DNA of 40,777 nucleotides from Litchfieldia alkalitelluris (GTDB lineage Bacteria > Bacillota > Bacilli > Bacillales > Salisediminibacteriaceae): the NCBI RefSeq assembly GCF_002153425.1, contig NZ_KZ119600.1:1244316-1285092 (forward strand). The letters run 5' to 3'. Position numbers and translations under genes: made by a program. Shown here piece by piece: positions 2,507 to 39,591 of the stretch. The notes beneath the pieces are model-generated. The model was not told where the DNA came from. It did no database searches and saw only the letters and a list, made by a program, of their open reading frames with translations. The stretch's first letter is position 1. Every line of letters starts with the position of its first letter.

Positions 2507-2513
2507 AATATTC

Positions 2514-2711: not shown

Positions 2712-2748
2712 TTTTAATATTAGCAAGTTACTGCCTTTTAGTTGTTTT

Positions 2749-18776: not shown

Positions 18777-18828
18777 TGTCCTAGAGCCCTTCTAACTAGA
18801 GGGTGAAAAAAAGAGGGTGTTACTAACG

Positions 18829-19419: not shown

Positions 19420-19427
19420 GTGAGAAG

Positions 19428-19973
19428 ATGAGTGAAGTATACAAACGATTACAACGGTTAGAAAAACGAATACATGAGGAAGGTTTCACGACCCCTACTG
19501 GAATAGGTAGTGAAATTCCTCATTATGTATTTGACTATCCACCAGAAGAAGAACTGCAAGTCCGTTTATATGTTCCAAGTTTAATCCAGCGGTCAACAGT
19601 GGACATTAAAGAGATTAATTTATTTCAATTCTTATTAAACCTGTTTGAAGATGAGTTGGACGAGTTGTTAGAGATTAGTGAGGAAGAAGGATATGAAGGT
19701 ATCGTTGATGTCGTGGAAACGATGTTAGATGAGCAAGATACATTAGTAGATACATTTATTGAAGAAGCAGGAGAAGCAGAGATTCTATTTATTACAGGGG
19801 TAGGGAACTCATTTCCATTTTTACGATCAAGTCAAATTTTAAAAATGCTTTCTAATGCTGCTTACCGGAAGCCAATTGTTTTATTTTATCCTGGTCATTT
19901 CACTGGATTAGAGTTACGACTATTTAATCGATTAAATAATGAAGACCAATATCAATTGTCACGTATTTCTTAG
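19428..19973 (+). CDS. brxB: BREX protein BrxB (DUF1788)
   Basis: The product has 181 residues and the BrxB/DUF1788 pattern: an N-terminal helix (YKRLQRLEKRI), a central acidic helical part, and a C-terminal core ILFITGVGNSFPFLRSSQIL followed by PIVLFYPGHFTGLELRLF. The family is required in BREX type 1 but its biochemical role is unknown. It begins 8 bases after brxA with GGTGAGA as ribosome site and ends 10 bases before brxC. Confidence 0.88.
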   Translation: MSEVYKRLQRLEKRIHEEGFTTPTGIGSEIPHYVFDYPPEEELQVRLYVPSLIQRSTVDIKEINLFQFLLNLFEDELDELLEISEEEGYEGIVDVVETMLDEQDTLVDTFIEEAGEAEILFITGVGNSFPFLRSSQILKMLSNAAYRKPIVLFYPGHFTGLELRLFNRLNNEDQYQLSRIS

Positions 19974-19983
19974 GGGGGATATT

Positions 19984-23601: not shown

Positions 23602-23607
23602 GATAAG

Positions 23608-23648
23608 GAGGCTGTCTCGAATGTATTTTACTAAATTGAGACAGCCTC
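23608..23648 (+). promoter_or_regulatory. perfect hairpin between brxC and the first pglX
   Basis: GAGGCTGTCTC pairs with GAGACAGCCTC (11 bp) around a 19-base loop, followed by TTCTT. It starts 7 bases after brxC and ends about 20 bases before the pglX start. It may be an attenuator or mRNA-processing site setting the methyltransferase level; the T tract is too poor for a strong terminator. Confidence 0.6.
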
Positions 23649-23668
23649 TTCTTAAGAGGAGGGTTATC

Positions 23669-24328
23669 TTGAATAAAGCAGAGTTAAAAACATTTGCAAT
23701 AGAAACGAGAAGAGATTTATTAGAAAAAGTAGCGCTTCGAGGGAAATTATTTGGGATAGATAAGGATACAAGTTCCCTGTCCATGAACGAGCAATTCGGT
23801 CAGCTTACAGTTAATGAAAAACAATACCCATTACATACGAAACATGCCTTTACATCGCTTGAAAGAGAGCTAAACTCAAAAGGCTATGAGCAGTTAATTG
23901 AAGAAGTCGCATATACATGGTTTAACCGAATCATTGCGATTCGTTATATGGAAGTACATGGTTACCTACCTGAACGAGTTCATGTGTTATCAAGTAGCAC
24001 AGGAAAAGCAGAACCAGATATATTAAATCAATATGATTCAATGGATTTACATGTAAAAAGAGAAGAGGTTGCTGAAGACATTCGTAAGGGTGACACGGAA
24101 GCAGCCTATCGCAAGCTTTTTATTGCTCAATGTAATGCCTTAAACTCAATCCTCCCGTTCTTATTTGAGAAAATTAATGATTATACAGAACTATTACTAC
24201 CGGATTTTTTACTTGATAGTGAATCAGTGATTAGTAAGCTGGTTAATAATGATAAATTGACAGAGAGCTTTAATGAAGTAGAGGTCATTGGTTGGTTGTA
24301 TCAATTCTATAATACAGAACCAAAAGAT
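23669..24328 (+). repeat. pglX N-terminal repeat, copy 1
   Basis: These 660 bases align without gaps to 27177-27836 (offset 3508) and encode nearly the same N-terminal domain. The many silent differences show this repeat is older than the C-terminal one. Confidence 0.85.
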
Positions 24329-27115
24329 AAAGTGTTAGAAGGGTTAAAGAAAAACAAAAAAATAACAAAAGCTACTTTACCATCAGCTACTCAATTATTT
24401 ACTCCAAAATGGATTGTGAAATATATGGTAGAAAATACATTAGGGAGATTATGGCTGGACAATTTTCCTGATTCTGAATTGAAAAAAGAAATGGATTATT
24501 ACATTAATCCACAGGAACAAAAAATTAAGGGTCATACAAAACAAATAAACCTAGAAGAAATAAAAATTTTAGACCCGTTTTGTGGTTCAGGTCATATATT
24601 AATTTATGCTTTTGAATTGCTTTTTAATATGTACGAAGAAGCAGGGTATCCAACAAGTGAAATACCAAAAAGTATAATTGAAAACAACCTAATTGGAATA
24701 GACATTGATAAAAGAGCTGCTCAGTTATCGAGCTTTTCGTTATTAATGATAGCTCGTTCTAAATCAAGGTCAATTTTCAGAAAAAGAATTCAACCAAACA
24801 TTATAATCATTGAGGAGACAAATGAAATTCCTAAAAAAGAATTAGCTAATTTATTTTTTAGTGACAATCAAAGAATAAACGAATTATTTATTGAATTCCT
24901 TGATGAATTTGATAATGCAAAAATTTTTGGTTCTCTCATTAAACCGAATGAATACCCAATTGATTTATTTCAAACTGGTATTGACGAATTTAAAAAGGAA
25001 GAATCATTTAATTTATTTAATTTAGAATTATTAAGTTATGTTGAAAATATTAAACATTTTCTAAAGCAGTACAAGCTACTAAATTCAAAATATGACATTA
25101 TTATTACTAACCCTCCTTATATGGGGACGAAAGGTATGCAAAAAATACTTTCTGATTTTGTATACAAGATTTATCCAAAAAGTAAATACGATTTGTATAC
25201 TTGTTCAATAGAAAGAATTTTTGATCTAGGACATACAGAAACGTATTATTCCTTAGTAACTCCATTTACGTGGATGTTTTTAAAAAAATATGAGTCATTT
25301 AGAGAAAATATTGTTAGTAATAAGGATATTTTATCACTTATACAGCTGGAGTATAATGCCTTTGAAGTTGCTATGGTACCAGTCTGTACCTTCACCTTGA
25401 AAAATAGTCAGGAGGGTATTAAGGGAGACTTTATACAATTAGCAGAATTTAAAGGATCACAAAATCAACCAATAAAAACTCTAGAAGCCATAAAGAACCC
25501 TGATATATATTACAGATATTCTGTTGAAACATCTAGATTTTCAATGATTCCTGGTTCACCTATTGCTTTTTCAGCAAGTGATAAATTGCGTGAAACATTT
25601 TTAGAAAATAAAAGTATACATGATTATACAATTTCAGCGAGTCAAAATGTTACAGGTAATAATAATAAATACTTAAGACACTTCTGGGAAGTGAATAATA
25701 AAAATTATATAGCGAATGAGGGGAAATGGAGATTTTATGCAAAGGGCGGTGGTTTTAAAAAGTGGTATGGGAATTTAATTGAATTGGTTGATTGGTCTCC
25801 AGAAGCGAGAGAGCAATATAAAACTGGACACGCTTCACAGATAATACCTGAGAAATACTGGTATAAAAAAGGTATTACTTGGGGATTAATTACAAACTCT
25901 AAGCCGAGTTTTAGAGTTTTACCTCAAGATGCAACCTTTGATAAGGGTGGATCATCAATTTTTGTAGAGAATAATGAGAATTATAATTTAATCATCGGTA
26001 TTTTAAATTCTAAGGTAAGCCAGCTATATCTTGAATACCTGGCACCAACACTTAATTTTCAAGTTAGTGATATAAGAAAAATACCTGTAATAGAGCCTAT
26101 GAATAAAGATGGATTTAGAGAAATTGTTGATAAATGCATTGAAATATCGACTATAGATTGGAACTCTTATGAAACGTCTTGGGATTTCACTTCTCATCCG
26201 TTTGTAAAGTATAAAAATAATTATGATAAAATACCTTACATTTTTTCTAGCTGGGAAAAGAGAACGGAGATACAATTTTCTAATATGAAAAAATATGAAG
26301 AACAGTTAAACAGTCTCTTAATTGAATTATATTCACTTCAATATGACCTTACTCCAGAGGTGTCAGATAAAGATATTACAATAAACAAAGCTGATCGAGT
26401 CAGTGACACCAAATCCTTCCTCTCCTACTTCATCGGATGCATGATGGGGCGTTATTCTCTAGACGTTGAAGGACTTGCTTATGCTGGTGGGGAATGGGAT
26501 GAATCTAAGTATCAAACATTCAAACCTAATAACCATGGGTTAGTACTACTAACCGACGATCGTTACTTTGACGATGACATCATCACCCGCCTACGTGAAT
26601 TTTTATCTGTTGCTTTCAGTCCTGAAACTGTAGATGAGAACATGGAGTGGATTGCTGAGTCATTGACAATGAAGAAAAATGAATCTGCTGAAGAGCGCTT
26701 GCGTCGTTATTTTATCGATGAATTTTTCAAAGACCATATTAAGGTTTATCAAAAGCGACCGATCTATTGGCTTGTTGATTCTGGAAAACAAAAGGGCTTG
26801 CGTACACTTGTTTACTTGCATCGTTATCAACCAGACACAATGGCTACGATTAGATTTGAGCATTTACAAGAGATACAAGCAAAGTATAACAATGAAATCT
26901 CATCTATTGATAGTCGTATCGTAAACCCTAGCTTAAGTGCAACAGAAAAGAACGAATTAGATAAGAAAAAGACTCTCTTCCAGAAACGTTTAGATGAGCT
27001 AGTAGAATTTGATAAAGATCTTGCGATGTATGCAAATGAACAGATTGATATTGACTTAGATGATGGCGTGAAAGTGAATTATTCTAAATTTGACAAGGTA
27101 TTGGCTAAAATATAA
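23669..27115 (+). CDS. pglX: BREX adenine methyltransferase PglX, copy 1
   Basis: The product has 1148 residues, starting at TTG 23669 because AGGAGGG lies 5 bases upstream and the second copy starts at the equivalent ATG. S-adenosylmethionine motif I, LDPFCGSGHIL, lies near residue 300, and catalytic motif IV, ITNPPYMG, near 480, as in gamma-class N6-adenine methyltransferases. PglX marks a host motif and is needed for defence in BREX type 1. Residues 1-220 and the last 230 are nearly identical to copy 2. The middle, with the methylation domain and target-recognition part, is clearly different. This gives the operon two specificities. A hairpin precedes the gene and another follows it. Confidence 0.92.
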   Translation: MNKAELKTFAIETRRDLLEKVALRGKLFGIDKDTSSLSMNEQFGQLTVNEKQYPLHTKHAFTSLERELNSKGYEQLIEEVAYTWFNRIIAIRYMEVHGYLPERVHVLSSSTGKAEPDILNQYDSMDLHVKREEVAEDIRKGDTEAAYRKLFIAQCNALNSILPFLFEKINDYTELLLPDFLLDSESVISKLVNNDKLTESFNEVEVIGWLYQFYNTEPKDKVLEGLKKNKKITKATLPSATQLFTPKWIVKYMVENTLGRLWLDNFPDSELKKEMDYYINPQEQKIKGHTKQINLEEIKILDPFCGSGHILIYAFELLFNMYEEAGYPTSEIPKSIIENNLIGIDIDKRAAQLSSFSLLMIARSKSRSIFRKRIQPNIIIIEETNEIPKKELANLFFSDNQRINELFIEFLDEFDNAKIFGSLIKPNEYPIDLFQTGIDEFKKEESFNLFNLELLSYVENIKHFLKQYKLLNSKYDIIITNPPYMGTKGMQKILSDFVYKIYPKSKYDLYTCSIERIFDLGHTETYYSLVTPFTWMFLKKYESFRENIVSNKDILSLIQLEYNAFEVAMVPVCTFTLKNSQEGIKGDFIQLAEFKGSQNQPIKTLEAIKNPDIYYRYSVETSRFSMIPGSPIAFSASDKLRETFLENKSIHDYTISASQNVTGNNNKYLRHFWEVNNKNYIANEGKWRFYAKGGGFKKWYGNLIELVDWSPEAREQYKTGHASQIIPEKYWYKKGITWGLITNSKPSFRVLPQDATFDKGGSSIFVENNENYNLIIGILNSKVSQLYLEYLAPTLNFQVSDIRKIPVIEPMNKDGFREIVDKCIEISTIDWNSYETSWDFTSHPFVKYKNNYDKIPYIFSSWEKRTEIQFSNMKKYEEQLNSLLIELYSLQYDLTPEVSDKDITINKADRVSDTKSFLSYFIGCMMGRYSLDVEGLAYAGGEWDESKYQTFKPNNHGLVLLTDDRYFDDDIITRLREFLSVAFSPETVDENMEWIAESLTMKKNESAEERLRRYFIDEFFKDHIKVYQKRPIYWLVDSGKQKGLRTLVYLHRYQPDTMATIRFEHLQEIQAKYNNEISSIDSRIVNPSLSATEKNELDKKKTLFQKRLDELVEFDKDLAMYANEQIDIDLDDGVKVNYSKFDKVLAKI
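26423..27115 (+). repeat. pglX C-terminal repeat, copy 1
   Basis: These 693 bases align without gaps to 29949-30641 (offset 3526). The first 600 or so are identical except for about four bases. Such identity beside a divergent central part points to recent gene conversion or recombination. Confidence 0.9.
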
Positions 27116-27125
27116 TCTTTATTGC

Positions 27126-27154
27126 TAGGTGTTTGTTCTGAGGACAAACACCTA
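27126..27154 (+). promoter_or_regulatory. perfect hairpin between the two pglX genes
   Basis: TAGGTGTTTGT pairs with ACAAACACCTA (11 bp) around the loop TCTGAGG, without a T tract. It is unrelated in sequence to the hairpin before copy 1 but occupies the same place, 22 bases before the start codon. Confidence 0.6.
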
Positions 27155-27176
27155 TATAGAGGGAGGGTATGTATTA

Positions 27177-27836
27177 ATGAACAAAGCAGAGTTAAAAACA
27201 TTTGCGATAGAAACAAGAAGGGATTTATTAGAAAAAGTAGCGCTTCGAGCGAAATTATTTGGAATAGAAGAGGGTACAAGCTCCCTGTCCATGAACGAAC
27301 AATTCGGTCAGCTTACAGTTAATGAAAAACAGTATCCATTACATATGAAACATGCCTTTACATCTCTTGAAAGAGAGCTAAGTATGAAAGGCTATGAACA
27401 ACTAATTGAAGAAGTCGCTTATACATGGTTTAACCGCATCATCGCGATTCGATATATGGAAGTACACGGCTTTCTACCTGAACGAGTCCATGTGTTATCG
27501 AGTAGCACTGGAAAAGCGGAACCGGATATATTAAATCAATATGAGTCAATGGATTTAAATATAAAGAGAGAAGAGGTTGCTGAGGATATACGTAAAGGAG
27601 ATACGGAAGCTGCTTATCGAAAGCTTTTTATTGCTCAATGTAATGCGTTAAACTCAATCCTCCCGTTTTTATTTGAGAAAATTAATGACTATACAGAGCT
27701 ATTGCTACCTGATTTTTTACTTGATAGTGAATCAGTGATTAGTAAGCTTATTCGAAATGACGAATTGACTCAGAGCTTTTATGAGGTAGAAGTCATTGGT
27801 TGGTTGTATCAGTTCTATAATACAGAACCGAAAGAT
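27177..27836 (+). repeat. pglX N-terminal repeat, copy 2
   Basis: Partner of 23669-24328; same length, direct orientation. Confidence 0.85.
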
Positions 27837-30641
27837 CAAGTATTTGCAAATTTAAAGAAAAACAAAAAGATAGAAAAATACGATATCCCAGCTGCTACCC
27901 AGTTATTTACACCAAAGTGGATTGTTAAATACATGGTAGAGAATTCACTAGGACAAATTTGGCTTGAGTCAAACCCTGATTCACCATTAAAGGATTCACT
28001 GAAATATTATATCGAGCCTGCTGAACAAGAAGAAGAAGTAAAGAATAAATTAGAGGAAATTGCATACAAGAATATAAGTCTTGAAGATATTAAAATAATA
28101 GACCCATGTGTTGGTTCGGGGCATATCCTTGTTTATGCATTTGATTTATTAAGTCAAATGTATGAAGAATCAGGATACCCAAGTGATGATATTCCACAAC
28201 TAATTCTCGAGAAAAATTTGTATGGTTTAGATATCGATGACCGCGCAGTTCAGCTTGCTTCCTTTGCATTAATAATGAAATCACGTGCAAATTCTCGTCG
28301 TTTTTTTAGGAAAAAAATTAAACTAAATATTTTCTCAGTTAAGGAATCCAATTATTTAAATAAAGAAGGTATTATAGATATTTTCTCTTCTAATCCTGAA
28401 GAAAGGGTTGAAATACATGCATTGCTTGATTTATTTCGGAATGCAAAGAATTTTGGCTCAATACTACCAACAATTAATATAGATTTCGAAAAATACTTGA
28501 AAATGTTATCTGAAAAAGACAAAATTGAGACGACACTCATGAATTATGGGGTAGTGGATCAATTGGATGATTTGCAAGAATTATTAAACGTTGCAAAAAT
28601 TCTATCAGATAAATACGATGTTGTTATAACAAATCCTCCCTATTTAGGATCTAAAGGAATGAATTCAGAATTACTTGAGTTTTTAAAGGTTAATTTTCCA
28701 AATTCAAAAGGTGATTTAAGTACTGTAATTATGGAACAGTCTATGAATCGTCTGAAAAATAATGGTTTTATGGCTGTGATAAATATTCCATCATGGATGT
28801 TTTTATCTTTATACGAAAAAATGAGGGTAACTATTATAGACAAATACATGATCCATAATTTAGTTCATTTGGGTAGAGGTATATTTGGATCAGATTTTGG
28901 TACAGTTACATTTGTTTTTAGAAATTCTCACTTGAATTCCTATAAGGGATATTATAAAAAATTAATAAATAAACAAGGTGAAGTTGACTCTGTTGAAAAA
29001 AAAGAACAAAAGTACTTTGAAATGGAAAAAAATTATTACGTTTGCCAAGAAAATTTTAAGTTAATAAATGGTAGCCCTTTTGCCTATTGGGCCTCTGAAA
29101 GGATATTAAATTTATACAAAGTTCAAAATAAAGTTGGCGAATTATATGACGTTAAACTTGGCACTACCACAGGTAATAATGATTATTTTTTAAGACTTTG
29201 GCATGAGGTAGATGCCAATAACTTTGTAGTGAAATCTCCCTTCATTACGACTAAAAATAAAAAGTGGTATCCAGTTGTAAAGGGTGGTGATTTTCGTAAA
29301 TGGTTTGGAAATCTATTTTATGTAGTTCTTTACGAAAATGACGGTTATGAATTAAAGAATTTTAAAGGATCAACTTTTAGAAATGCCGATTTTAATTTTA
29401 GAGAGGGGATAACTTGGACAGCTTTAAGTTCTTCCAAATTTGGGGTGCGTTATCTTCCCGAAGGATTTGTATTAATAAATGGTGGATCAGCCTTGTTTCC
29501 ACAAGATCGGAATGAGATACAGATAACTTTAGCTTTTTTAACAACTAAAGTAGCACATTATTTGCTAGGTTTTGTAAGCCAGACTTTTCAATTTGAAGTC
29601 GGACATATAAAATCAATCCCTTTGATAAATGTTATTAATAAGGAAGTTGAAAAATTATCCTCCGAGAATATAAATATATCTAAACAAGATTGGAATTCAT
29701 TTGAAACATCTTGGGATTTTGTAAACCATCCACTATTACAATATAGAAAAGTAAAACTTAACGAATCATTCAAGCATTGGGAAATGAATAAAGAAATTCA
29801 TTTTAAAAAAATGAAGGATAATGAAGAAAAACTTAATCGTATTTTTATTGAGTTATACAATTTAGAAGAAGAAATAACACCAGAAGTTTCTGAATCGGAT
29901 ATTACTATTTATAAAGCGAATCGTGAACGTGAGGCAAAATCATTATTGTCCTACTTCATCGGATGCATGATGGGGCGTTATTCTCTAGACGTTGAAGGAC
30001 TTGCTTATGCTGGTGGGGAATGGGATGAATCTAAGTATCAAACATTCAAACCTAATAACCATGGGTTAGTACTACTAACCGACGATCGTTACTTTGACGA
30101 TGACATCATCACCCGCCTACGTGAATTTTTATCTGTTGCTTTCAGTCCTGAAACTGTAGATGAGAACATGGAGTGGATTGCTGAGTCATTGACAATGAAG
30201 AAAAATGAATCTGCTGAAGAGCGCTTGCGTCGTTATTTTATTGATGAATTTTTCAAAGACCATATTAAGGTTTATCAAAAGCGACCGATCTATTGGCTTG
30301 TTGATTCTGGAAAACAAAAGGGCTTGCGTACACTTGTTTACTTGCATCGTTATCAACCAGACACAATGGCTACGATTAGATTTGAGCATTTACAAGAGAT
30401 ACAAGCAAAGTATAACAATGAAATCTCATCTATTGATAGTCGTATCGTGAATCCTAGCTTAAGTGCAACAGAAAAGAACGAATTAGATAAGAAAAAGATT
30501 CTCTTCCAGAAACGTTTAGATGAGCTAGTAGAATTTGATAAAGATCTTGCGATGTATGCAAATGAACAGATTGATATTAACTTAGATGATGGTGTGAACG
30601 TGAATTATGCCAAATTTGATAAGGTGTTAGCAAAAATATAG
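27177..30641 (+). CDS. pglX: BREX adenine methyltransferase PglX, copy 2
   Basis: The product has 1154 residues from ATG 27177, with GGGAGGG upstream. Motif I, IDPCVGSGHIL, lies near residue 308 and motif IV, ITNPPYLG, near 486, so the enzyme looks active. Its N-terminal and C-terminal domains match copy 1, while residues about 225-920 differ widely, with only the core motifs conserved. In PglX that region contains the target-recognition part, so a different DNA motif is expected. It lies 61 bases after copy 1 in the same operon and is followed by a gene remnant and a strong terminator-like hairpin. Confidence 0.92.
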   Translation: MNKAELKTFAIETRRDLLEKVALRAKLFGIEEGTSSLSMNEQFGQLTVNEKQYPLHMKHAFTSLERELSMKGYEQLIEEVAYTWFNRIIAIRYMEVHGFLPERVHVLSSSTGKAEPDILNQYESMDLNIKREEVAEDIRKGDTEAAYRKLFIAQCNALNSILPFLFEKINDYTELLLPDFLLDSESVISKLIRNDELTQSFYEVEVIGWLYQFYNTEPKDQVFANLKKNKKIEKYDIPAATQLFTPKWIVKYMVENSLGQIWLESNPDSPLKDSLKYYIEPAEQEEEVKNKLEEIAYKNISLEDIKIIDPCVGSGHILVYAFDLLSQMYEESGYPSDDIPQLILEKNLYGLDIDDRAVQLASFALIMKSRANSRRFFRKKIKLNIFSVKESNYLNKEGIIDIFSSNPEERVEIHALLDLFRNAKNFGSILPTINIDFEKYLKMLSEKDKIETTLMNYGVVDQLDDLQELLNVAKILSDKYDVVITNPPYLGSKGMNSELLEFLKVNFPNSKGDLSTVIMEQSMNRLKNNGFMAVINIPSWMFLSLYEKMRVTIIDKYMIHNLVHLGRGIFGSDFGTVTFVFRNSHLNSYKGYYKKLINKQGEVDSVEKKEQKYFEMEKNYYVCQENFKLINGSPFAYWASERILNLYKVQNKVGELYDVKLGTTTGNNDYFLRLWHEVDANNFVVKSPFITTKNKKWYPVVKGGDFRKWFGNLFYVVLYENDGYELKNFKGSTFRNADFNFREGITWTALSSSKFGVRYLPEGFVLINGGSALFPQDRNEIQITLAFLTTKVAHYLLGFVSQTFQFEVGHIKSIPLINVINKEVEKLSSENINISKQDWNSFETSWDFVNHPLLQYRKVKLNESFKHWEMNKEIHFKKMKDNEEKLNRIFIELYNLEEEITPEVSESDITIYKANREREAKSLLSYFIGCMMGRYSLDVEGLAYAGGEWDESKYQTFKPNNHGLVLLTDDRYFDDDIITRLREFLSVAFSPETVDENMEWIAESLTMKKNESAEERLRRYFIDEFFKDHIKVYQKRPIYWLVDSGKQKGLRTLVYLHRYQPDTMATIRFEHLQEIQAKYNNEISSIDSRIVNPSLSATEKNELDKKKILFQKRLDELVEFDKDLAMYANEQIDINLDDGVNVNYAKFDKVLAKI
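29949..30641 (+). repeat. pglX C-terminal repeat, copy 2
   Basis: Partner of 26423-27115; same length, direct orientation. Recombination between the copies would delete about 3.5 kb and leave a single pglX with the middle part of copy 1. Confidence 0.9.
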
Positions 30642-30810
30642 GTAGGTTCACCCTAAAAGTCAAAAGTATATACCTGAAGAAGAAAGTTCCGATTCTGTTT
30701 TAACAGACAGGAGATCAACGAACTAGAAAGTATCAACAAAAAGGCTGATAATAGTTCAGTTGTACGATGGAGAGAATTAAGAAGGACATTAACCTATAAA
30801 AATACAGTTG
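30642..30810 (+). pseudogene. coding remnant between pglX copy 2 and pglZ
   Basis: No intact gene. A protein-like stretch PEEESSDSVLTD is followed, after a one-frame shift near 30710, by EINELESINKKADNSSVVRW and RELRRTLTYKN. The remnant is too short to assign. It may be the tail of a lost gene that once stood between pglX and pglZ. Confidence 0.4.
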
Positions 30811-30845
30811 AAAAGGCAAAGCTTACAATAAGTGCTTTGCCTTTT
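30811..30845. terminator. strong hairpin upstream of pglZ
   Basis: AAAAGGCAAAGC pairs with GCTTTGCCTTTT (12 bp) around an 11-base loop; it looks like a bidirectional terminator. It would separate pglZ and the helicase gene from the upstream BREX genes unless read through. A TACAAT at 30874-30879 could be part of a new promoter, but I see no good -35 box. Confidence 0.7.
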
Positions 30846-30954
30846 CTTGCGAGATTTTATATATCAATAATGATACAATATAAGGAAGTAACACTTAATT
30901 TTAACATTTAATTATAAATTATAGATGAACAACTACCTAGTTCGAGGTGATTAT

Positions 30955-33456
30955 ATGGATGTAATTGATTCGTTAAAGGAAAAGATTCAACAAGAGAAAG
31001 AGAAGAAAGGTAGAGCGATTGTTTTTTGGTACGATCCAGCGATGCAAGTTTTATTAGATGAACTACAAGAATCGTTAAAAGATGAAGAGGTTGTTGTTCG
31101 TGAATTAACGGAAAATAATTTCTTTACGACGAAAGTAGAGCTTGAGATCAAACAGCCTAAGCAATCATATTTATTATATGCACCGTTCCCACAGCCGAAG
31201 GAACAGCATAATTATTTACTTGATATTTTATTATATAGTGCAGAGTTTAAAGCGGATGAAGTAGCAGTATTAGCAGAACGATTAGGGGTTAAAGATAACG
31301 TCCTTCGTCCGATGATGGAGCAATACCCATTGTTTTTCCGTAGCGCAAAACGAAAAGAAAGGCTTGGACGTTTCGTATCGCAGCAATCCGATGTACGCGA
31401 TTTAGAAATTGCAATGGTGGCAGTACTCGTTAACTCTCCATCACCTACTATTTCTAGAATTACAAGAAGTCTTTTAGTTGCTGGGATTGAAGAGGAAAAT
31501 AATAAGTACATAGGTGATGTTAAGAAATACTTTTTACTTGAACGAATGTACGAACTAATTCAGCAGTATTTCGGTATTTCGATTCAAATTCATGAAAATC
31601 CCCTTACATACATACTTGAAATCATGTTATATCAACACGTGAAACGAGATGCGTTGTTGTCAGCAAATTCATTAGATGAACAGTATCCATCTACATTACC
31701 AAATGTTTGTGCCATACTAGTTGATGATTGGATGCGTTCCAGTGAAAAAGAAACTTTGGTTCTTGAGCAATACATTAAGGATACAGAGGCAACATTCCAA
31801 CTTCGTCCGTTAATGATGGAGCATGAGTTAGACCAGTTTGAGAAGGTATCAACTTTCCCGACGATAGATTACTTATTAATTGAAAAGCTTATTGATGAAT
31901 TAGAGCATGACATCTCTAATGTGAAGCAATGGCAAAAACGTCTTCTATACAGGAAGGGTACCTATTGGGGTAAGAAGAAGCATATTCAACAACTTTATGA
32001 CGTTTTGATAGAGTCAGTTCGTTTCACTGAAAGAAAGTCATTCCTAAAACAATATGACAGTCGTTCAGAGGTATATGGTCAATATGCGACAACCTTGCAT
32101 CTAATTGACCAATCATATCGTCGGTTTATGTTTTATTATACGAAGCTACAATCAAGGGAAATCGTTGATTCATTGGCACAGTCTTTAACCAATTGGTATG
32201 AAAACGTATTTTTATTAAAAATGGCAACAGAAAGTAATTATTTTCTTGAAAACAACGAAAGCACACATGTACCGAAACAACGCTCGTTCTTTTCTTCTTC
32301 CATTAAGCCGATTCTTGATAAAGAACAAACAAGGGTGTTTGTCATTATTTCAGATGCCTTACGTTATGAGGCAGGGGCAGAATTAAGTGAACGGTTAAAC
32401 AAACGAATTAATGGACAAGCATCTGTTTCACCATTATTTGCTAGTCTACCTTCTTACACACAGCTTGGCATGGCGTCGTTACTACCAAATCGTCGTTTTT
32501 CGATTGACAATAAGGTCGTGTACACTAGTGAACATTCAACAAGTGGATTAGTGAATCGCAATAAAATTCTACAGCAAGCTCATCCTGATGCTAGTGCATA
32601 TCACTTGAATGATTTACTTGATTGGAAGAGTGAGGCAAACGAACATTTAAAAGGAAAACGTCTTGTTTATTTTTATCATGATGTCATTGATGCGACGGGA
32701 GATTCAAAGAAATCTGAACGTGAGACGTACGATGCTGTAGAGAGAGCTCTTGAGGCAATCGAACGTGCTGTTGACCGTTTATCTGCGTTACAAGCGAAGC
32801 GAATTTTTATTACGTCTGACCACGGTTTTTTATTCCAGCTAACAAAGGTTGAAGCAGATGCAAAGGTAGAAGCAGTGACTGGTGATGTTGTCGACCAAAG
32901 TCGTCGTTTTGCGATTGGTTCTTCTCTTTCTGTTCCAGAAGGAGCGATTAAATTATCTGAAAGTCAAACTCTGTTTGAGAATGCAGAAGTTGTACTTGCT
33001 AAAGGGGTTAATCGATTTATAACGGGTGGTGGCTTACAGTTCATTCATGGTGGTGCGATGCCACAAGAAGTGATTACACCTCTTATTGATTATCGAAGAA
33101 CAGAAATGGCAGAACAGGTGAACGTTAGTGTTGCGATGCTTGACAAGACGATTACCAACTATCGTATTCCTGTTTCATTCTACCAAGAAGAGAGTATCTC
33201 AACTGATTATGTACCACGACAATTAAAAGTGGCGTTTTATCAAGATGATGAACGTATTTCAAATGAAGTAACCGTGACGTTTGATTTAGTGGGTGAAACA
33301 CAGGATCGTAATCAAACGATTCCATTCAACCTTGTCGAGAAGTATTATGCAATTGGTGAGACATGTACGCTAAGAGTCGAAACGATACAAGGGAACAAAT
33401 CCCAAATTTATAAAGAGGAACGATTTACTATTCGAATGTATGATGCAATCTATTAA
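30955..33456 (+). CDS. pglZ: BREX protein PglZ (BrxZ)
   Basis: The product has 833 residues from ATG 30955, which follows GAGGTGAT; an earlier ATG at 30925 lacks a ribosome site. The PglZ domain is an alkaline-phosphatase-superfamily fold. Its metal-binding motifs are visible as VIISDALRYEAG near residue 463 and FITSDHGFLF near 619. PglZ is the hallmark protein of all BREX types and is essential for defence; its substrate is still debated. The N-terminal half is helical. It stands 12-30 bases before the helicase gene and forms a unit with it. Confidence 0.93.
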   Translation: MDVIDSLKEKIQQEKEKKGRAIVFWYDPAMQVLLDELQESLKDEEVVVRELTENNFFTTKVELEIKQPKQSYLLYAPFPQPKEQHNYLLDILLYSAEFKADEVAVLAERLGVKDNVLRPMMEQYPLFFRSAKRKERLGRFVSQQSDVRDLEIAMVAVLVNSPSPTISRITRSLLVAGIEEENNKYIGDVKKYFLLERMYELIQQYFGISIQIHENPLTYILEIMLYQHVKRDALLSANSLDEQYPSTLPNVCAILVDDWMRSSEKETLVLEQYIKDTEATFQLRPLMMEHELDQFEKVSTFPTIDYLLIEKLIDELEHDISNVKQWQKRLLYRKGTYWGKKKHIQQLYDVLIESVRFTERKSFLKQYDSRSEVYGQYATTLHLIDQSYRRFMFYYTKLQSREIVDSLAQSLTNWYENVFLLKMATESNYFLENNESTHVPKQRSFFSSSIKPILDKEQTRVFVIISDALRYEAGAELSERLNKRINGQASVSPLFASLPSYTQLGMASLLPNRRFSIDNKVVYTSEHSTSGLVNRNKILQQAHPDASAYHLNDLLDWKSEANEHLKGKRLVYFYHDVIDATGDSKKSERETYDAVERALEAIERAVDRLSALQAKRIFITSDHGFLFQLTKVEADAKVEAVTGDVVDQSRRFAIGSSLSVPEGAIKLSESQTLFENAEVVLAKGVNRFITGGGLQFIHGGAMPQEVITPLIDYRRTEMAEQVNVSVAMLDKTITNYRIPVSFYQEESISTDYVPRQLKVAFYQDDERISNEVTVTFDLVGETQDRNQTIPFNLVEKYYAIGETCTLRVETIQGNKSQIYKEERFTIRMYDAIY

Positions 33457-33483
33457 TGCTCATGAAGCTTGTGGAGGGGTAAT

Positions 33484-36400
33484 ATGCTAGATGTTGGTGA
33501 CATAGTCAAAGGACCGTTCTGGTCTGAAATTGTAGAGATAAAAAAATGTGAGCTGATTGATGATGCTTTATATGTTGTTGAAGCAATTGGAAGACAGAGT
33601 AGTCAGTTCTATGAGACCTACCTCGAAGATTATCAACTAGAGCAATTAGAACGATTGCAACAAAGGACGAATACATCCTTTAATAAAGAACGTCTGCAGC
33701 ATTTTTTACAATATTATGTGCTACGAGCAGATGAGAAATATTCAGAGTCTCAGGCACGAGGTAATAATAAAATGATGCCACTACCTCATCAAATAGAAGC
33801 CGTTTACAGTCGAATGCTTCAATCACCTCAAGTTAGATATTTACTTGCAGATGATCCTGGTGCAGGGAAGACAATCATGTCCGGAATGCTTTTACGGGAA
33901 TTAATGGGTCGTGACATGGTTGAACGTGTTCTAATTCTAGTGCCACCTCTTGTCTTAAAGCAGTGGCAGGAAGAGCTTCGTGAAAAGTTCTCAGAGGACT
34001 TTGTTATCGTCAATCGTACCCTTTTAAATAGCGCTGGTGACATGAATCCATTTGAAACACATGATAAGCTACTTACCTCTCTCTATTGGGCTTCAAGAGA
34101 AGAGGTTAAGAACTTAATTTTAAAAGCAAACTTTGATCTGGTTATTGTAGATGAAGCACATAAAATGGCAGCCTATACTCATGGTGTGAAAAAGAAAAAG
34201 GTGCAAAGGACAAAGATGTTTCAATTAGGTGAGACGTTGCTTCGACATACGGAGCATTGCTTGCTTTTAACTGCCACACCACATAAAGGAGACAAGGAAA
34301 ATTTTCGCCATTTGATGAGCCTGATTGATCACGATATTTTTTCAAAGTTAAACAGTAGCGAGTCGTTATTTGAAAAGAGCAATCCATTCGTTATTCGTCG
34401 ATTAAAAGAGGTGATGGTAAAGTTTGATGGTACACCATTATTCCCTAAGCGAACAACGAAAACGCTTGGCTTCGACCTGAGTAAAGAGGAAATTGAATTG
34501 TATGAGGAGGTAACAGAGTATGTAAGGGAGCACTTTAACCGCGCAAAGCAAAATAATAAACCGAGTGTGGCCTTTGCAATGATGCTTCTTCAACGGCGCC
34601 TCAGTTCATCAGTAGAGGCGATTTATTTATCACTAGTCCGAAGAAAAGAAAGGTTAGAAGAAGTGATGACGCAAGAACGGAAGTCCCACCAGTTAGATAT
34701 TGACCCGTATGAAGAGTTGTCACCAGAAGAACAAGAGGAGCTTGAAATGAATGTAGAAGGCGAAACGGATACATTAGACTTAGCTGAACTGCAGCTGGAG
34801 ATTGATGTACTTAGTCGTCTTATCAGGAAAACAAATCAAGTTCGTCAAAGTGGCACTGAACGAAAGTATATGGAATTAGAGCGAACATTATTTGGACCAG
34901 ATGGACTTCTAGCAAAAGGGGAGAAAATCTTAATTTTTACCGAATCAAAAGATACGCTACATTTCCTAGAGCAGCGTCTACTTGGATATGTTCCAGAAGT
35001 GACAAAAATCATAGGAAACTACTCAATGGATAAACGACGTGAACAAGTGGAAAGATTTCGCAATGAGGCTCAAGTAATGCTTGCAACAGATGCAGGGGGA
35101 GAATCGATTAATCTCCAATTTTGTAACCAAATGATTAATTACGATATTCCTTGGAACCCTAACCGCTTAGAACAAAGGATGGGGCGTATTCATCGTATTG
35201 GACAAAAGAATGAAGTGTTTATTTTTAACTTAGTTGCAACTAATACAAGAGAGGGCGATGTATTGTCGCGCTTACTGACAAAGCTAGAGATGATGCGTGA
35301 AGACTTAGGACAAGAGCTTGTCTATGATTTTATTGGGGATGTCTTAGAAGAACAGTCTGTCGATTTATCCTCATTAATGGAAGAAGCCATTAGTGGACGA
35401 GAACACCTTGATGATATCATCGCACGTATGGAGAAAGCGTTATCAGAAGAACATAAACGATTGTTAGAGCTAACCAAAAATGAACGGGTAGACGAGCAGA
35501 GTTTTGATTTGCCAGGAATGAGAAGAGCTCACCATGAACGCACAATTACGAGCTTGCCAGCAAGAGTCTATGGAGAATTTGTAGTTAAGCAATTTGAAAC
35601 GTCTCGTATAAGGTTGAATGTATCTCACGACCGTAAGATAGCTAGAATTGAGCGTTTTCCAAAAAATATTCGTGAATTTGCAAGGAAACAGAAAATTATG
35701 ATTAATACTGAAGAATCTACGCGCTTTGCCCTTAAATCTAGAGCACAAAAAGAAAATTTAGAACTAATAAAGAGCAGTGATCCTGTCTACAAGTTATCGA
35801 TGATATTAACAGCTAACGAAGTACAGCAAATTGTTTTGCCTGTATGTGTACTTAATGGAAATGTGACTGAGCCTCTAACTGTCGAATTAAGTGAGGTACG
35901 TATAGTCGATGGAACAGGAAGAGAACTTGAACAAAAGCTATTATTACTAGCGAAAAGAGATGATGGTCGAAGAGTAACGATTAGCCCGTATCTTCTTTTT
36001 GAAAGTGAATTACGTCTAACTAATGCAAATATTCCGGAAGAACAGGGCTTCAAAGGAGAAGTGATTCAACAAGCAAGAAAGCTTCTTAGAAGTGTTCAAC
36101 TAAAACGTGACCATTATGTGAACCGAAAAAGTATGTATTTACGTAAAGCCTTCGACGAGCAAATGAACACGCTTCAAAAGCGCCTGCAACAATACGAAAG
36201 TAACAACGATGACAATCGAAATAGTGCCTTAATTAATCAAACATACACTCAAATAGAAGACTTAGAAGAACGCAGCCGTGAACGTTTGGATGAAATGGAA
36301 CGAGAGCGTAGCATCCAGCTCCGTCCTGTTAAACGACTAGCCCAAATAAGAATTGAACCACTAACAGAGGCTTATCCAAGGCTGATTCCAGAAGATGTGT

Positions 36401-36669
36401 ATTCTCTTATCAAACAGTATGAACTTGAAAATGGTAGAGTGAATGTTACTCCACAAAGTGCTTTTGGACTTATTGATTTTACATCTGAAACACCAGATGG
36501 GGAGATTCGTCTCATTTTATTTACAACTAACATAAATGAGTTATTAAACCATCTTCGAATAGAGGACTATGAACATATAAGGGATAGTGTGTATGTATAC
36601 GAGCTAGATAGTGATTCAATTATGGTAGATAAGCCATTATCATTGTTAATTAGCGAGTCACTGCTTTAA
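33484..36669 (+). CDS. SNF2-family helicase of the BREX operon
   Basis: The product has 1061 residues from ATG 33484 with GGAGGGG upstream. Walker A, LLADDPGAGKTIMSG, lies near residue 119. DEAH, LVIVDEAHKMAAY, lies near 220, and motif III, LTATPHKGD, near 261. Motif V, TDAGGESINLQFCN, and motif VI, RLEQRMGRIHRIGQ, lie near 540-570. These define a SNF2/RapA-like translocase, related in kind to BrxHII of BREX types 3 and 5 and DrmD of DISARM. A coiled coil at about 885-950 and a C-terminal beta-rich domain follow. It takes the place where BREX type 1 operons have brxL. The gene follows pglZ after 27 bases. Confidence 0.88.
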   Translation: MLDVGDIVKGPFWSEIVEIKKCELIDDALYVVEAIGRQSSQFYETYLEDYQLEQLERLQQRTNTSFNKERLQHFLQYYVLRADEKYSESQARGNNKMMPLPHQIEAVYSRMLQSPQVRYLLADDPGAGKTIMSGMLLRELMGRDMVERVLILVPPLVLKQWQEELREKFSEDFVIVNRTLLNSAGDMNPFETHDKLLTSLYWASREEVKNLILKANFDLVIVDEAHKMAAYTHGVKKKKVQRTKMFQLGETLLRHTEHCLLLTATPHKGDKENFRHLMSLIDHDIFSKLNSSESLFEKSNPFVIRRLKEVMVKFDGTPLFPKRTTKTLGFDLSKEEIELYEEVTEYVREHFNRAKQNNKPSVAFAMMLLQRRLSSSVEAIYLSLVRRKERLEEVMTQERKSHQLDIDPYEELSPEEQEELEMNVEGETDTLDLAELQLEIDVLSRLIRKTNQVRQSGTERKYMELERTLFGPDGLLAKGEKILIFTESKDTLHFLEQRLLGYVPEVTKIIGNYSMDKRREQVERFRNEAQVMLATDAGGESINLQFCNQMINYDIPWNPNRLEQRMGRIHRIGQKNEVFIFNLVATNTREGDVLSRLLTKLEMMREDLGQELVYDFIGDVLEEQSVDLSSLMEEAISGREHLDDIIARMEKALSEEHKRLLELTKNERVDEQSFDLPGMRRAHHERTITSLPARVYGEFVVKQFETSRIRLNVSHDRKIARIERFPKNIREFARKQKIMINTEESTRFALKSRAQKENLELIKSSDPVYKLSMILTANEVQQIVLPVCVLNGNVTEPLTVELSEVRIVDGTGRELEQKLLLLAKRDDGRRVTISPYLLFESELRLTNANIPEEQGFKGEVIQQARKLLRSVQLKRDHYVNRKSMYLRKAFDEQMNTLQKRLQQYESNNDDNRNSALINQTYTQIEDLEERSRERLDEMERERSIQLRPVKRLAQIRIEPLTEAYPRLIPEDVYSLIKQYELENGRVNVTPQSAFGLIDFTSETPDGEIRLILFTTNINELLNHLRIEDYEHIRDSVYVYELDSDSIMVDKPLSLLISESLL

Positions 36670-37303
36670 ATAAGGCTCCGGTTACTGAATACATTGAAGT
36701 CCTAACTGAATTACCAAAAAGTTGTACGAAAAAATAGAAATTTAATAGTTGAAATGGTCATAAACTGAAGTGCGTCATTCTGGTTGGGACCGTACCATAA
36801 AAGATTGGTAAAAGTGTTCGTTTCATAGTGGAATTAGGCAAAATGTTGGAATATTATCGACAAAATCCGGGGAGTGACACAGGCACTTTTACTTTTTCGA
36901 TAGGTACTAAGATTTAGTGGTTTGGGCACCTATTCCCTCCCCTTGGGCTACAGAGGATTACATTCCCTCCTATCAGGGAAGAGAAAGTAATTTCCACAAG
37001 TGAGAACTTTATTACTAAGCTTATAAATCGACGATGCTACTTTTTATTCCAGATTCATATCCTACATTACTTTCTTATGGAAGTGTATTTAATTCCACGC
37101 ATAGATCATGTATGTATCATTGGCAGTAACTCAATTGAGTAGCTCTGGTTTTACGGTTTGGTTTGCTAAAAAATTTTCAAGGAACATAACATAGCTTATT
37201 AATCTAATTACAATATATTTCTAATAGAGAAATAATTAATTTGATATAATCTGGTAATACGGTAAATTATATTTATAAATGCTTTTGAATGGAGGGGCAA
37301 AAA
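36670..37303. other. intergenic region after BREX
   Basis: No gene is supported. A short frame right after the helicase stop (APVTEYIEVLTELP) and a later fragment may be decayed coding sequence. There is a REP-like inverted pair at 36869-36942 and a small perfect repeat TTCCCT/AGGGAA near 36964-36981. The sequence TTGATATAAT at 37241-37250 contains a possible -10 box for the next operon. Confidence 0.45.
36869..36942. repeat. REP-like inverted pair
   Basis: GGGGAGTGACACAGGCAC on the left faces GGCACCTATTCCCTCCCC on the right across 38 bases. The arms match imperfectly. The unit resembles the GTGCCTGTCACTCCC type of palindrome that I recall from Bacillaceae genomes. Confidence 0.45.
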
Positions 37304-38128
37304 ATGGGGAAACCACTAACACCTGCTCAAGAAAAGATAAGAGATGATCAAATCTTAAAAAATGAAAATTTTATTGAAATGATTGATTCTTTGCTAGAAG
37401 AAATTGAACCATTTTACATAGAAAGCAATAAATATAATACCTATTTAGTAGACTTGTTTGACAAATTAAATAATGCCCATGGAATGCTAATGCAGGGGGA
37501 ATACGCCAATCTATATACAAAAAATCTTGCTAGCCCAGTATCTGCAGTATTTGATTTTTATAATAGTGTTAGTGATGAATTCTGTATCTTAGATGAAAAA
37601 CTGCAAAAGGAACTTCTGAAGGATTTACCAGATTTAGATAGATTTCAAGATAAAATAAATTATTTCTTTAATAAAATTAAGCCACTATTTGATGATGTAA
37701 ATGCTGAAAATTCAATAATCGTTAGGTTTGAAGGTTTAGAACAAATCTACATCGAACTTAAACGTCTATCAGAAGATTATTGGAGTTATCCTAAAGAACT
37801 TGCAGTAAGACAAGCATTACATAATCGAGAGTTTATTCAGCCTGTTATGTTGCATGGTATTCCTAGAACTAATCCATTTCATATTAAAATATATATTGAT
37901 TACTCACCTAAACTAAACACTGCTCTATTGTTAAAAGGCAAACTGTTAAAACTAAAACCATTACTTAAGACAATTAATGCTCAACTACCTTTTGCCGAGT
38001 TAAATGAAAAAGTACCTCATATTCAAAATATTGTAAATGGCATTGACAAAAGTACATCTATTGGAGAGCACACAAGTATTGGGAATAATAATGCTATAGG
38101 AGATAAATCTTCTGTAAGGGGAGAGTAA
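37304..38128 (+). CDS. helical protein with a C-terminal Gly/Asn-rich motif
   Basis: The product has 274 residues. I chose ATG 37304 because GGAGGGG precedes it; an in-frame ATG at 37289 overlaps that site. Residues 1-235 look all-helical and soluble, with no recognised family. The last 25 residues change character: STSIGEHTSIGNNNAIGDK, short repeats with Ile-Gly every six or so residues, as in beta-solenoids and amyloid-like signalling motifs. The next gene starts 1 base after the stop and its product begins with the same motif, VGDNNAIGNNASV. The two probably interact through it. The pair and the following DUF6602 gene form a likely defence cassette; that role is inference. Confidence 0.75.
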   Translation: MGKPLTPAQEKIRDDQILKNENFIEMIDSLLEEIEPFYIESNKYNTYLVDLFDKLNNAHGMLMQGEYANLYTKNLASPVSAVFDFYNSVSDEFCILDEKLQKELLKDLPDLDRFQDKINYFFNKIKPLFDDVNAENSIIVRFEGLEQIYIELKRLSEDYWSYPKELAVRQALHNREFIQPVMLHGIPRTNPFHIKIYIDYSPKLNTALLLKGKLLKLKPLLKTINAQLPFAELNEKVPHIQNIVNGIDKSTSIGEHTSIGNNNAIGDKSSVRGE

Positions 38129-38129
38129 A

Positions 38130-38357
38130 ATGCCAGTGAAAATTGAGAAAGGCGCTAAAGTTGGAGATAATAATGCCATTGGAAATAATGCAAGTGTGAA
38201 AATTAACCATAACAACGACTCAACAAAAGCGGATAAAACATGGTTTGGAAAGCACCCTTGGTTGTCAGCAATTATTTGTTCGTTAATAGCTGGTATTATT
38301 TTGCTTTTGGATTGGGATAAAATTTTTTCTTTTATAAAGGGGCTATTTGGCAGCTAG
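38130..38357 (+). CDS. small membrane protein with an N-terminal matching motif
   Basis: The product has 75 residues. Residues 3-24 carry IEKGAKVGDNNAIGNNASV, nearly the same as the tail of the preceding protein. A short polar linker (NHNNDSTKADK) follows, then one membrane segment at about 46-63 (AIICSLIAGIILLL) and an amphipathic end (FSFIKGLFGS). The layout of motif plus transmembrane helix suits a small effector that is nucleated by a partner and then acts on the membrane; this is hypothesis. The ribosome site GGGGAG lies inside the end of the upstream gene, so the two are coupled. Confidence 0.75.
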   Translation: MPVKIEKGAKVGDNNAIGNNASVKINHNNDSTKADKTWFGKHPWLSAIICSLIAGIILLLDWDKIFSFIKGLFGS

Positions 38358-38373
38358 GTGTTATTTAGCTGTC
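38350..38373 (+). terminator. weak hairpin after the small membrane gene
   Basis: CAGCTA pairs with TAGCTG around a loop GGTGTTATT, followed by T-rich sequence. It may attenuate transcription into the DUF6602 gene. Confidence 0.4.
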
Positions 38374-38466
38374 AGTTTAATTTAATATATGATGTTAAAA
38401 AACATATAGAAAGATTAGTTGTTTATAGGCAATTAAATTAAATTAATTAAACAAGGGGGCAGAAAT

Positions 38467-39591
38467 TTGGCAAACTCTCAATTTCAGTATTACATTGATG
38501 AACATGCACAAAACTTTAAAAGAGCTTTTGAAAGTTCGAAATCACTTTTTAAGAAGCATCCCGATGCAATGAGTTTTCATAATCATGAATTTGGAACTTA
38601 CCGTGAAGAACTGGTTAGACAATATTTAAGGTCTTTTATTCCTGAATTTCTTGACTTAAGTCATGGTTTTATTATTACTCCTTCTGATAACAATAGTCCT
38701 CAATGTGATGTAGTTGTATACGACAAAGGAAACAGTACGTTAATTCAAGCAGGGGGTCTACAAAGGTTCTTTACTGTAGAAAGTGCAGCAGCAATTGGAG
38801 AAGTGAAGTCTGATTTAGCATTAGGTGCTGAAAAGAATTCTTTGAAAAGTAGTTTGTTAAAACTCGCAAATAAAGTGAAGTCTCTTAGAGAAGATGTGAA
38901 TTTAAATTCTGTAGTTATATTAAAAGGCAATTCACACAGGAAACAAACTGATTTCTTTTATAACAGATTACTTGAAAATGCTGCGGTACTAAAAAAGTTA
39001 ATCGGTAGTTTGGATGAAGAAAAGCAAGAAAATTTTAAGGATATATTAAAGGAAGTAGACGAGAAAATAAAACTATTTTCTAAAAATACTGAGGAAATAA
39101 AAATTGAGTTGGAATTGGAACAGGATGTTGAAGTTAAATTAGAGCGAGCGATAAAAGATTTTAACACCATGTATAAAAGTTATGTGGCAATGAGATATAA
39201 TCCCCAATCATATCATTTTGACCACCTAGCAACTTTTCTAGTTTGTAACAAATTAAATTTTGGTGATACTGATGAAAAAAATGAAAAAAATAAAAACAGT
39301 TTAATAGAAAATATTAAGAATTGGTACGGAACGACAGAACAGTATAACTGGAATAATATGGTCCTAAGTATTGAAGATGGAATAATTTTATATAGAAGTA
39401 AAAAAGGAGAATTTTGTCCATACCCTGTTTGGTGGGGGGAAAATACTGAGATGGTGTTTGTGCCAGCTAATGAGGGTAATGATCATATTAAATTGTTTTT
39501 CTATTTTATGTATCAAATATCAAGTAATGCAACGATTTTATGCCCAGAAATTAATGAATATATAACAATTCCAGACATGAAATATATATAA
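38467..39591 (+). CDS. DUF6602 protein, nuclease-like
   Basis: The product has 374 residues starting at TTG 38467, with AGGGGG 7 bases upstream. Residues 41-120 carry FGTYREELVRQYLR, QCDVVVYD (Asp81) and ESAAAIGEVKSDL (Glu112-x-Lys114). This is the D...ExK arrangement of the restriction-endonuclease-like fold found in DUF6602. Residues about 165-240 form a charged coiled coil. The C-terminal part is a mixed domain with CPYPVWWGENTEMVFVPA. I place it in DUF6602 from the motif pattern; whether it cuts DNA or RNA is unknown. It follows the motif-sharing pair by about 110 bases in the same direction and could be the sensor or a second effector of that cassette. Confidence 0.72.
   Translation: MANSQFQYYIDEHAQNFKRAFESSKSLFKKHPDAMSFHNHEFGTYREELVRQYLRSFIPEFLDLSHGFIITPSDNNSPQCDVVVYDKGNSTLIQAGGLQRFFTVESAAAIGEVKSDLALGAEKNSLKSSLLKLANKVKSLREDVNLNSVVILKGNSHRKQTDFFYNRLLENAAVLKKLIGSLDEEKQENFKDILKEVDEKIKLFSKNTEEIKIELELEQDVEVKLERAIKDFNTMYKSYVAMRYNPQSYHFDHLATFLVCNKLNFGDTDEKNEKNKNSLIENIKNWYGTTEQYNWNNMVLSIEDGIILYRSKKGEFCPYPVWWGENTEMVFVPANEGNDHIKLFFYFMYQISSNATILCPEINEYITIPDMKYI

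What the first reader, a model, noticed from the sequence alone, without database searches (positions are those of the whole stretch)
37304..39591. Three-gene cassette in which two proteins share an amyloid-like or beta-solenoid motif
A helical protein ends with SIGNNNAIGDK, and the next gene, 1 base away, encodes a 75-residue protein starting with KVGDNNAIGNNASV and ending in a membrane helix. A DUF6602 nuclease-like gene follows. Matching motifs on adjacent proteins are the hallmark of amyloid signalling pairs (for example BASS motifs of NLR-effector pairs), where one nucleates the other. Here no NLR is present, so this could be a distinct minimal signalling system with a membrane effector and a nuclease.
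Basis: partly seen in the sequence, partly recalled or inferred. Interest (0 to 1): 0.78.

Follow-up and report, generated by a model that had tools for sequence, protein, structure and literature searches.

The report
Motif-paired sensor and membrane-protein defence module
Two neighbouring genes next to a phage-defence (BREX) operon encode a soluble protein and a tiny membrane protein that carry the same short repeat, and relatives of the membrane protein are elsewhere paired, through a matching repeat, with the abortive-infection protein AbiTii, which suggests a way for bacteria to wire a phage alarm to the cell membrane.

Summary
The shared motif is real: P1 (37304-38128) ends STSIGEHTSIGNNNAIGDKSSVRGE; P2 (38130-38357) begins MPVKIEKGAKVGDNNAIGNNASV and has one membrane helix. 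It is no recent DNA duplication (36 of 60 bases; 4 of 9 shared codons identical). P1 fits no known family; one relative was found (Paenibacillus agricola, 51% identity), again followed by a motif-bearing P2. P2's membrane part belongs to a small family: in 20 further distinct loci such proteins pair with AbiTii (PF18864), whose C-terminus carries a similar motif in 20 of 20, also where gene order is reversed. P1 and AbiTii resemble each other only at the motif. So the unit is two genes, AbiT-like in layout, but P1 is not AbiTii and P2 is not matched by an AbiTi model. P3 (DUF6602 nuclease) is probably separate: terminator-like hairpin between, different neighbour in Paenibacillus, 0 of 21 other DUF6602 matches beside a motif pair. 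Most likely: a motif-coupled abortive-infection pair.

The parts
37291..37297 (+). Ribosome-binding site of P1 (GGAGGGG, 6 bases before ATG 37304)
   Evidence: read from sequence; the start MGKPL is shared by the Paenibacillus relative
37304..38128 (+). P1, 274 aa, no known family, no membrane helix; proposed soluble sensor/regulator
   Evidence: ORF; Pfam, PADLOC and NCBIfam: nothing above cut-off, only chance-level hits; PHROGs only E 0.036; one relative, L066 3154-3978, 51% identity over the full length
38051..38125 (+). C-terminal motif of P1 (STSIGEHTSIGNNNAIGDKSSVRGE), period-six [IV]G repeat
   Evidence: identical to the relative at 17 of 25 residues; residues 231-274 together 32 of 44, residues 1-230 107 of 230
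38118..38123 (+). Ribosome-binding site of P2 inside the last codons of P1 (GGGGAG)
   Evidence: read from sequence
38130..38357 (+). P2, 75 aa: N-terminal motif, linker, one membrane helix, short tail; proposed membrane effector
   Evidence: ORF; family of 22 distinct loci
38142..38201 (+). N-terminal motif of P2 (IEKGAKVGDNNAIGNNASVK) matching P1's C-terminus
38259..38315 (+). Membrane helix of P2 (WLSAIICSLIAGIILLLDW, mean hydropathy 2.12)
   Evidence: membrane part homologous to AbiTii-paired proteins (33.8 bits; 0 of 4923 scored shuffles reach it)
38347..38375 (+). Terminator-like hairpin over the stop codon of P2 (13 pairs, 4 of them G-C)
   Evidence: 2 such sites in 3.4 kb, mean 1.0 in shuffles: weak on its own
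38467..39591 (+). P3, DUF6602, NucC/PD-(D/E)xK-like; neighbour, probably not part of the unit
   Evidence: not beside the motif pair elsewhere
18817..36669 (+). Upstream BREX operon (BrxA, BrxB, BrxC, two PglX, PglZ, DrmD/BrxH-type helicase): defence-island context

Best explanation
P1-P2 is a two-gene abortive-infection type defence module. P1 is the soluble sensor or regulator; P2 is a small single-helix membrane effector; they are coupled by cognate short beta-solenoid-like motifs (C-terminus of P1, N-terminus of P2). In an infected cell P1 would change state, its motif would recruit or template P2's motif, P2 would cluster in the membrane and disturb it, stopping the phage together with the cell. 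Shown by sequence: gene order, matched motifs, membrane helix, a second P1-P2 pair in another genus, homology of P2's membrane part with AbiTii-paired proteins, matched motifs in those pairs. Inferred: defence function (from AbiTii, BREX and prophage company), which protein senses and which kills, and beta-solenoid assembly.
For: In 22 of 22 distinct pairs the best local alignment of the two proteins lies on the motifs. The motif goes with the protein, not with the gene border: in L059, L062 and L065 the membrane gene comes first and the motif is still at AbiTii's C-terminus. In an AbiTii survey of 299 genomes (10 places), 5 have motif and membrane partner and 5 have neither within the fetched stretch, one of these being a truncated frame. 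The partner type switches (AbiTii or P1, alike only at the motif) while the membrane body stays; in L067 the membrane body is not detectably the same while the motif stays. AbiT is a two-gene abortive-infection system, and an AbiTi from C. catus was toxic to E. coli (PMC3985639, passages). Context: BREX upstream; of the four pairs from viral contigs, three (L070, L071, L072) follow a phage-type amidase gene, L070 also a holin.
Against: No experiment and no structure. P1 has a single relative, so the P1 type rests on two loci. Three pairs (L060, L063, L070) match only weakly (2, 12 and 10 of 500 shuffles reach them) and the window pair itself is reached by 4 of 5000. Within AbiTii pairs, motif matching does not exceed shared descent. 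The P1 profile has two rows only, so one search has little power to see distant kinship with AbiTii. P2's family is not matched by the AbiTi model, so the toxicity of AbiTi does not carry over by homology; and in the same paper the L. lactis AbiTi and AbiTii were not toxic in E. coli. The letters G[DN]NNAIG alone are not diagnostic: 67 viral stretches encode them, and none of those with the letters near a protein end had a motif-bearing neighbour.
Confidence: 0.55

Rival explanations
1. Toxin-antitoxin reading: P2 is a constitutive membrane toxin and P1 holds it inactive through the motif; infection breaks the complex.
For: Two-gene, tightly spaced layout; small hydrophobic proteins are common toxins (established knowledge); an AbiTi from C. 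catus was toxic in E. coli (PMC3985639, passage).
Against: In that paper AbiTii did not neutralise that AbiTi, and the L. lactis AbiTi was not toxic (passage); motif matching is equally expected for activation.
Confidence: 0.2
2. Anchor reading: P1 is the effector and P2 only tethers it to the membrane through a static shared solenoid.
For: P2 is tiny with a single helix; P1 is the larger protein.
Against: P1 has no recognisable catalytic family; tethering does not obviously need two near-identical motifs.
Confidence: 0.15
3. Three-gene system in which the DUF6602 nuclease is the second effector.
For: P3 follows on the same strand 109 bases downstream; NucC-like PADLOC hit E 1e-14.
Against: Terminator-like hairpin at the end of P2; the Paenibacillus pair has another neighbour; 0 of 21 other DUF6602 matches lie beside a motif pair in stretches with up to about 1.5 kb on each side.
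Confidence: 0.07
4. The motif is a chance low-complexity or duplicated stretch without function.
For: 4 of 5000 shuffles reach the score for the single window pair.
Against: 22 of 22 pairs; the C-terminal 44 residues of P1 are better conserved (32 of 44) than the rest (107 of 230); the DNA of the two motifs has diverged.
Confidence: 0.03

Closest known systems
[quoted passage not shown]
   Same: Two co-directional genes; one partner soluble, one with a hydrophobic segment (the essential hydrophobic C-terminus of AbiTi is recalled from Bouchard 2002, not held); the membrane family of P2 is mostly found with AbiTii (20 of 22 distinct loci).
   Different: P1 is not AbiTii (no PF18864 hit; profile comparison aligns only the motif). 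P2 and its family are not matched by PADLOC's AbiTi model (0 of 19).
BASS amyloid signalling pairs (NLR plus Bell-domain effector)
   Same: Adjacent genes, one with a membrane-type effector, sharing a short motif at protein termini (PMC7889193 and PMC8086366, passages).
   Different: No NLR or NTPase; motif at the C-terminus of the soluble protein and the N-terminus of the membrane protein, the reverse of NLR N-terminus and Bell C-terminus; Bacillota rather than mainly filamentous actinobacteria and cyanobacteria.
Bacterial hexapeptide (left-handed beta-helix) repeats, PF00132
   Same: Period-six [IV]G pattern; only Pfam hit at E<=1 for both proteins.
   Different: Only three to four repeats, below the family cut-off, no acyltransferase domain.

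Membership tests
AbiT system | AbiTii domain (PF18864) in the larger protein | tested here: not met
   No hit at E<=1 for P1 or at E<=0.1 for its relative; no PF18864 match at E<=1e-6 in the window's genome G000
AbiT system | AbiTi partner (PADLOC PDLC02333) | tested here: not met
   0 of 19 membrane proteins, window included; in two genomes with pairs the model rings only elsewhere and weakly, as it does in 6 of 14 control genomes at that threshold
AbiT system | Two-gene layout with a hydrophobic partner | tested here: met
   (co-transcription not tested)
AbiT system | Phage protection by abortive infection | not testable with these tools
   needs a plaque assay
BASS amyloid signalosome | Shared short motif on two adjacent proteins | tested here: met
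BASS amyloid signalosome | NLR (NTPase) receptor | tested here: not met
   P1 (274 aa) has no Pfam family but the sub-threshold Hexapep hit
BASS amyloid signalosome | Motif forms amyloid and templates the partner | not testable with these tools
   structure prediction off; no fibril assay
Hexapeptide repeat (PF00132) | Score above curated cut-off | tested here: not met
   12.1 and 15.5 bits against 27
Membrane family of P2 (AbiTii-paired) | Homologous membrane body | tested here: met
   33.8 bits; 0 of 4923 scored shuffles reach it

The most novel reading that the evidence does not exclude
An NLR-free class of motif-templated immune signalling in Bacillota: different soluble sensors (AbiTii, P1 and perhaps more) carry a C-terminal beta-solenoid seed that nucleates a like motif on one family of single-helix membrane killers, so that sensor and killer are exchangeable modules wired by the motif. 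P1 would be a sensor family on which the searches made here found nothing in print.
Probability: 0.3. Interest if true: 0.85.

Novelty: new variant of a known kind. Interest (0 to 1): 0.62.

Why it matters
How AbiT works is not settled (my knowledge; [quoted passage not shown] The pairs found here suggest how AbiTii-type proteins could talk to a membrane partner: through a matched terminal motif. If the motif templates, amyloid-type immune signalling would extend beyond NLRs to some of the smallest two-gene defence modules, with a killer of about 65-75 residues, and this could be tested directly by swapping motifs.

Tried and rejected
Relatives of P1 by whole-protein search: none in 35 family genomes (1 of 35 = self), 398 phylum genomes (1 of 398 = self), plasmids (9; relative as query 58), phages, genome contigs with the single protein, viral contigs (17; two-row profile 57), and 162 genomes of the family of G799 with the two-row profile (62; no positive control in that search). 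The relative L066 came in only through P2. Solved structures: no match for P1 or P2; profiles gave only E 0.12 and above. The Paenibacillus P1 has one PHROG hit, phrog_30568, E 6.2e-4, with no stretch passing on its own; not pursued.

Weak hits dropped: one search counts 222 of 299 genomes at E<=1 (table capped); the window and four places at E<=5.1e-4 were kept, L031 and L038 were read and rejected, the rest was not read; 29 of 398 genomes at E<=0.01; six with E<1e-20 kept; L108 is the AbiTii motif of a kept locus; L085, L087, L089, L090 and L101 were read and rejected, the others not read. Of 26 plasmid records with AbiTii six were fetched (41-46); none has the motif or the membrane family (104). 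The six plasmid hits of P3 were not opened. Duplicates removed before counting pairs: L027=L055, L028=L061, L029=L060, L079 and L080 (near-identical to L057), L081=L026, L111-L115 (the AbiTii side of loci already listed), and L001, L002, L011, L025, L084 = window. One AbiTii (L059) is split into two reading frames in a metagenome-assembled genome; only its C-terminal piece was used.

The motif letters as DNA patterns in viral contigs (78, 79; 67 stretches) gave no pair (82; only matches within 40 residues of a protein end and same-strand neighbours were examined). The P1-type membrane pair as query in viral contigs found nothing. Literature: six searches on AbiT, amyloid and defence terms and one on beta-helix amyloids (100); none of the titles and abstract starts listed pointed to shared motifs in AbiTii pairs, and Bouchard 2002 is not held. 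Of PMC3710099, PMC3985639, PMC8086366, PMC7889193, PMC4759559, PMC6458302 and PMC10984412 I saw passages only (of the last, only its reference list); of PMC12261475 the abstract and section list, its passage search being empty; of all others the listing.

In one search the script cut the Paenibacillus membrane body 14 residues longer than the others; the window's cut was as intended.

Full report
What is there. Downstream of a BREX operon (BrxA, BrxB, BrxC, two PglX, PglZ and a DrmD/BrxH-type helicase, 18817-36669) lie P1 (37304-38128, 274 aa), P2 (38130-38357, 75 aa) and P3 (38467-39591, 374 aa) on the same strand. A ribosome-binding site for P2 sits in P1's last codons (read). P2 has one clear membrane helix (residues 44-62, mean hydropathy 2.12); P1 has none (maximum 0.75).

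The motif. P1 ends STSIGEHTSIGNNNAIGDKSSVRGE and P2 starts MPVKIEKGAKVGDNNAIGNNASVK. The best local alignment between the two proteins is here (score 49; 4 of 5000 shuffles reach it). Both read as [IV]G-x-x-x-x repeats; the only Pfam model at E<=1 for either is the hexapeptide repeat, well below its cut-off. The two DNA stretches share 36 of 60 bases and only 4 of 9 codons for identical residues, so a recent duplication does not explain it.

Relatives. Whole-protein searches with P1 found only itself in the sets searched. P2 was the way in: in 299 genomes of the order it found four small membrane proteins besides itself at E<=5.1e-4, each preceded by a 225-236 aa protein that Pfam names AbiTii (E 2e-27 to 3.8e-32). 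A five-row profile then gave 14 loci in genome contigs and 4 in viral contigs, and a 19-row profile six strong matches in 398 genomes of the class. After removing duplicates there are 22 distinct pairs: 20 with AbiTii and two with P1 (window and L066, Paenibacillus agricola). All 19 AbiTii partners tested match PF18864 (the split L059 was left out). The L066 protein is 51% identical to P1 over 274 residues: 107 of 230 before residue 231, 15 of 19 in residues 231-249 and 17 of 25 in the motif.

Matching. The collection was made through the membrane gene, its motif included, but not through the partner's motif; yet in 22 of 22 pairs the best local alignment of the two proteins falls on or includes the motifs. 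Four pairs are individually reached by shuffles (window 1, L060 2, L063 12, L070 10 of 500). In most AbiTii partners the domain ends near residue 190 and the motif begins near 205. In L059, L062 and L065 the gene order is reversed and the motif still sits at the C-terminus of AbiTii; in L065 the membrane protein has an extra N-terminal part before its motif. In an AbiTii survey of 299 genomes, 9 have it at 10 places: 5 places have motif and membrane partner (two of them nearly identical), 5 have neither in the fetched stretch (L109, L110, L116, L117 with a fused Ymh-type domain, and L118, a truncated frame). Six AbiTii plasmid loci also lack both.

Modularity. P1 and AbiTii profiles align only at the motif (235-259 against 209-231, probability 0.9%, E 0.06; the P1 profile has two rows, so this test is weak). 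The membrane body of P2 is homologous to that of the AbiTii-paired proteins (33.8 bits; best of 4923 scored shuffles 13.3), whereas in the Clostridia locus L067 the membrane body is not recognisable as the same (0 bits) though the motif is; L068 is marginal (6.7 bits, 2 of 1906 scored shuffles reach it). Between types the motifs differ: P1 motifs average 27 against AbiTii-type membrane motifs (maximum 36) and score 39-60 against the two P1-type ones; AbiTii motifs average 32 against P1-type membrane motifs (maximum 49) and 50 among their own, 58.75 for cognate pairs. No permutation of 20000 reached the cognate mean within AbiTii, but once the relatedness of the AbiTii body is taken into account the excess is not significant (partial Mantel 0.13; 18% of 2000 permutations reach it). 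The between-type difference is a single evolutionary contrast.

The nuclease. P3 has a DUF6602 domain and NucC-like similarity. A terminator-like hairpin (38347-38375) covers the end of P2 (weak on its own); P. agricola has another gene there; of 22 DUF6602 places found in 19 of 398 genomes, only the window's own lies near a motif pair in the fetched stretches (up to about 1.5 kb each side). I take P3 as a neighbour in the island.

Mechanism. Best reading: a two-gene abortive-infection type module, P1 sensing, P2 acting at the membrane, coupled by cognate solenoid-like motifs (0.55). Whether coupling is by amyloid-like templating or a static joint solenoid is open. AbiT is a two-gene abortive-infection system; an AbiTi from C. 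catus was toxic in E. coli and not neutralised by its AbiTii, while the L. lactis AbiTi and AbiTii were not toxic there (PMC3985639, passages). AbiTii is described as a novel alpha+beta domain with homologues fused to HEPN domains (PMC3710099, passages). The passages read do not mention a shared motif.

Membership. P1-P2 is not AbiT by its defining domains (no PF18864 in P1; no AbiTi model hit in P2) and not a BASS signalosome by its defining NLR. In layout it works like both. I call it a new variant of a known kind, with an undescribed P1 family.

Noticed in passing
window 23621-27115 and 27129-30641: Two tandem PglX genes: DNA identity 81-90% over the first 750 bases, 52-75% in the middle, 97-100% over 600 of the last 645 bases; a layout that invites recombination between target-recognition parts.
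   Followed up: partly
L109, L110, L073, L077, L078: Longer AbiTii proteins without the small membrane partner have repetitive polar or beta-rich stretches after the AbiTii domain and a hydrophobic-looking C-terminal segment, perhaps single-chain versions of the same idea (judged by eye).
   Followed up: no
L075 3001-4198 and L116 1489-2495: AbiTii without the motif is followed by another kind of partner, in L075 with an N-terminal hydrophobic helix (Enterococcus faecium plasmid).
   Followed up: no
L073, L074, L076: AbiTii genes beside TIR-domain genes (divergent in two Lactococcus plasmids, adjacent and co-directional in a Lysinibacillus plasmid); the motif was not found in these loci.
   Followed up: partly
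L070, L071, L072: AbiTii-membrane pairs a few hundred bases behind phage-type amidase genes (L070 also a holin) in viral contigs, as expected for prophage-carried defence.
   Followed up: partly
window 971-2835: Cluster of 16 tRNA genes near the start of the window, upstream of the defence island.
   Followed up: no
window 13728-18608: 1626-aa protein directly upstream of the BREX genes matching the candidate defence model PDC-S37 (E 1.6e-60).
   Followed up: no
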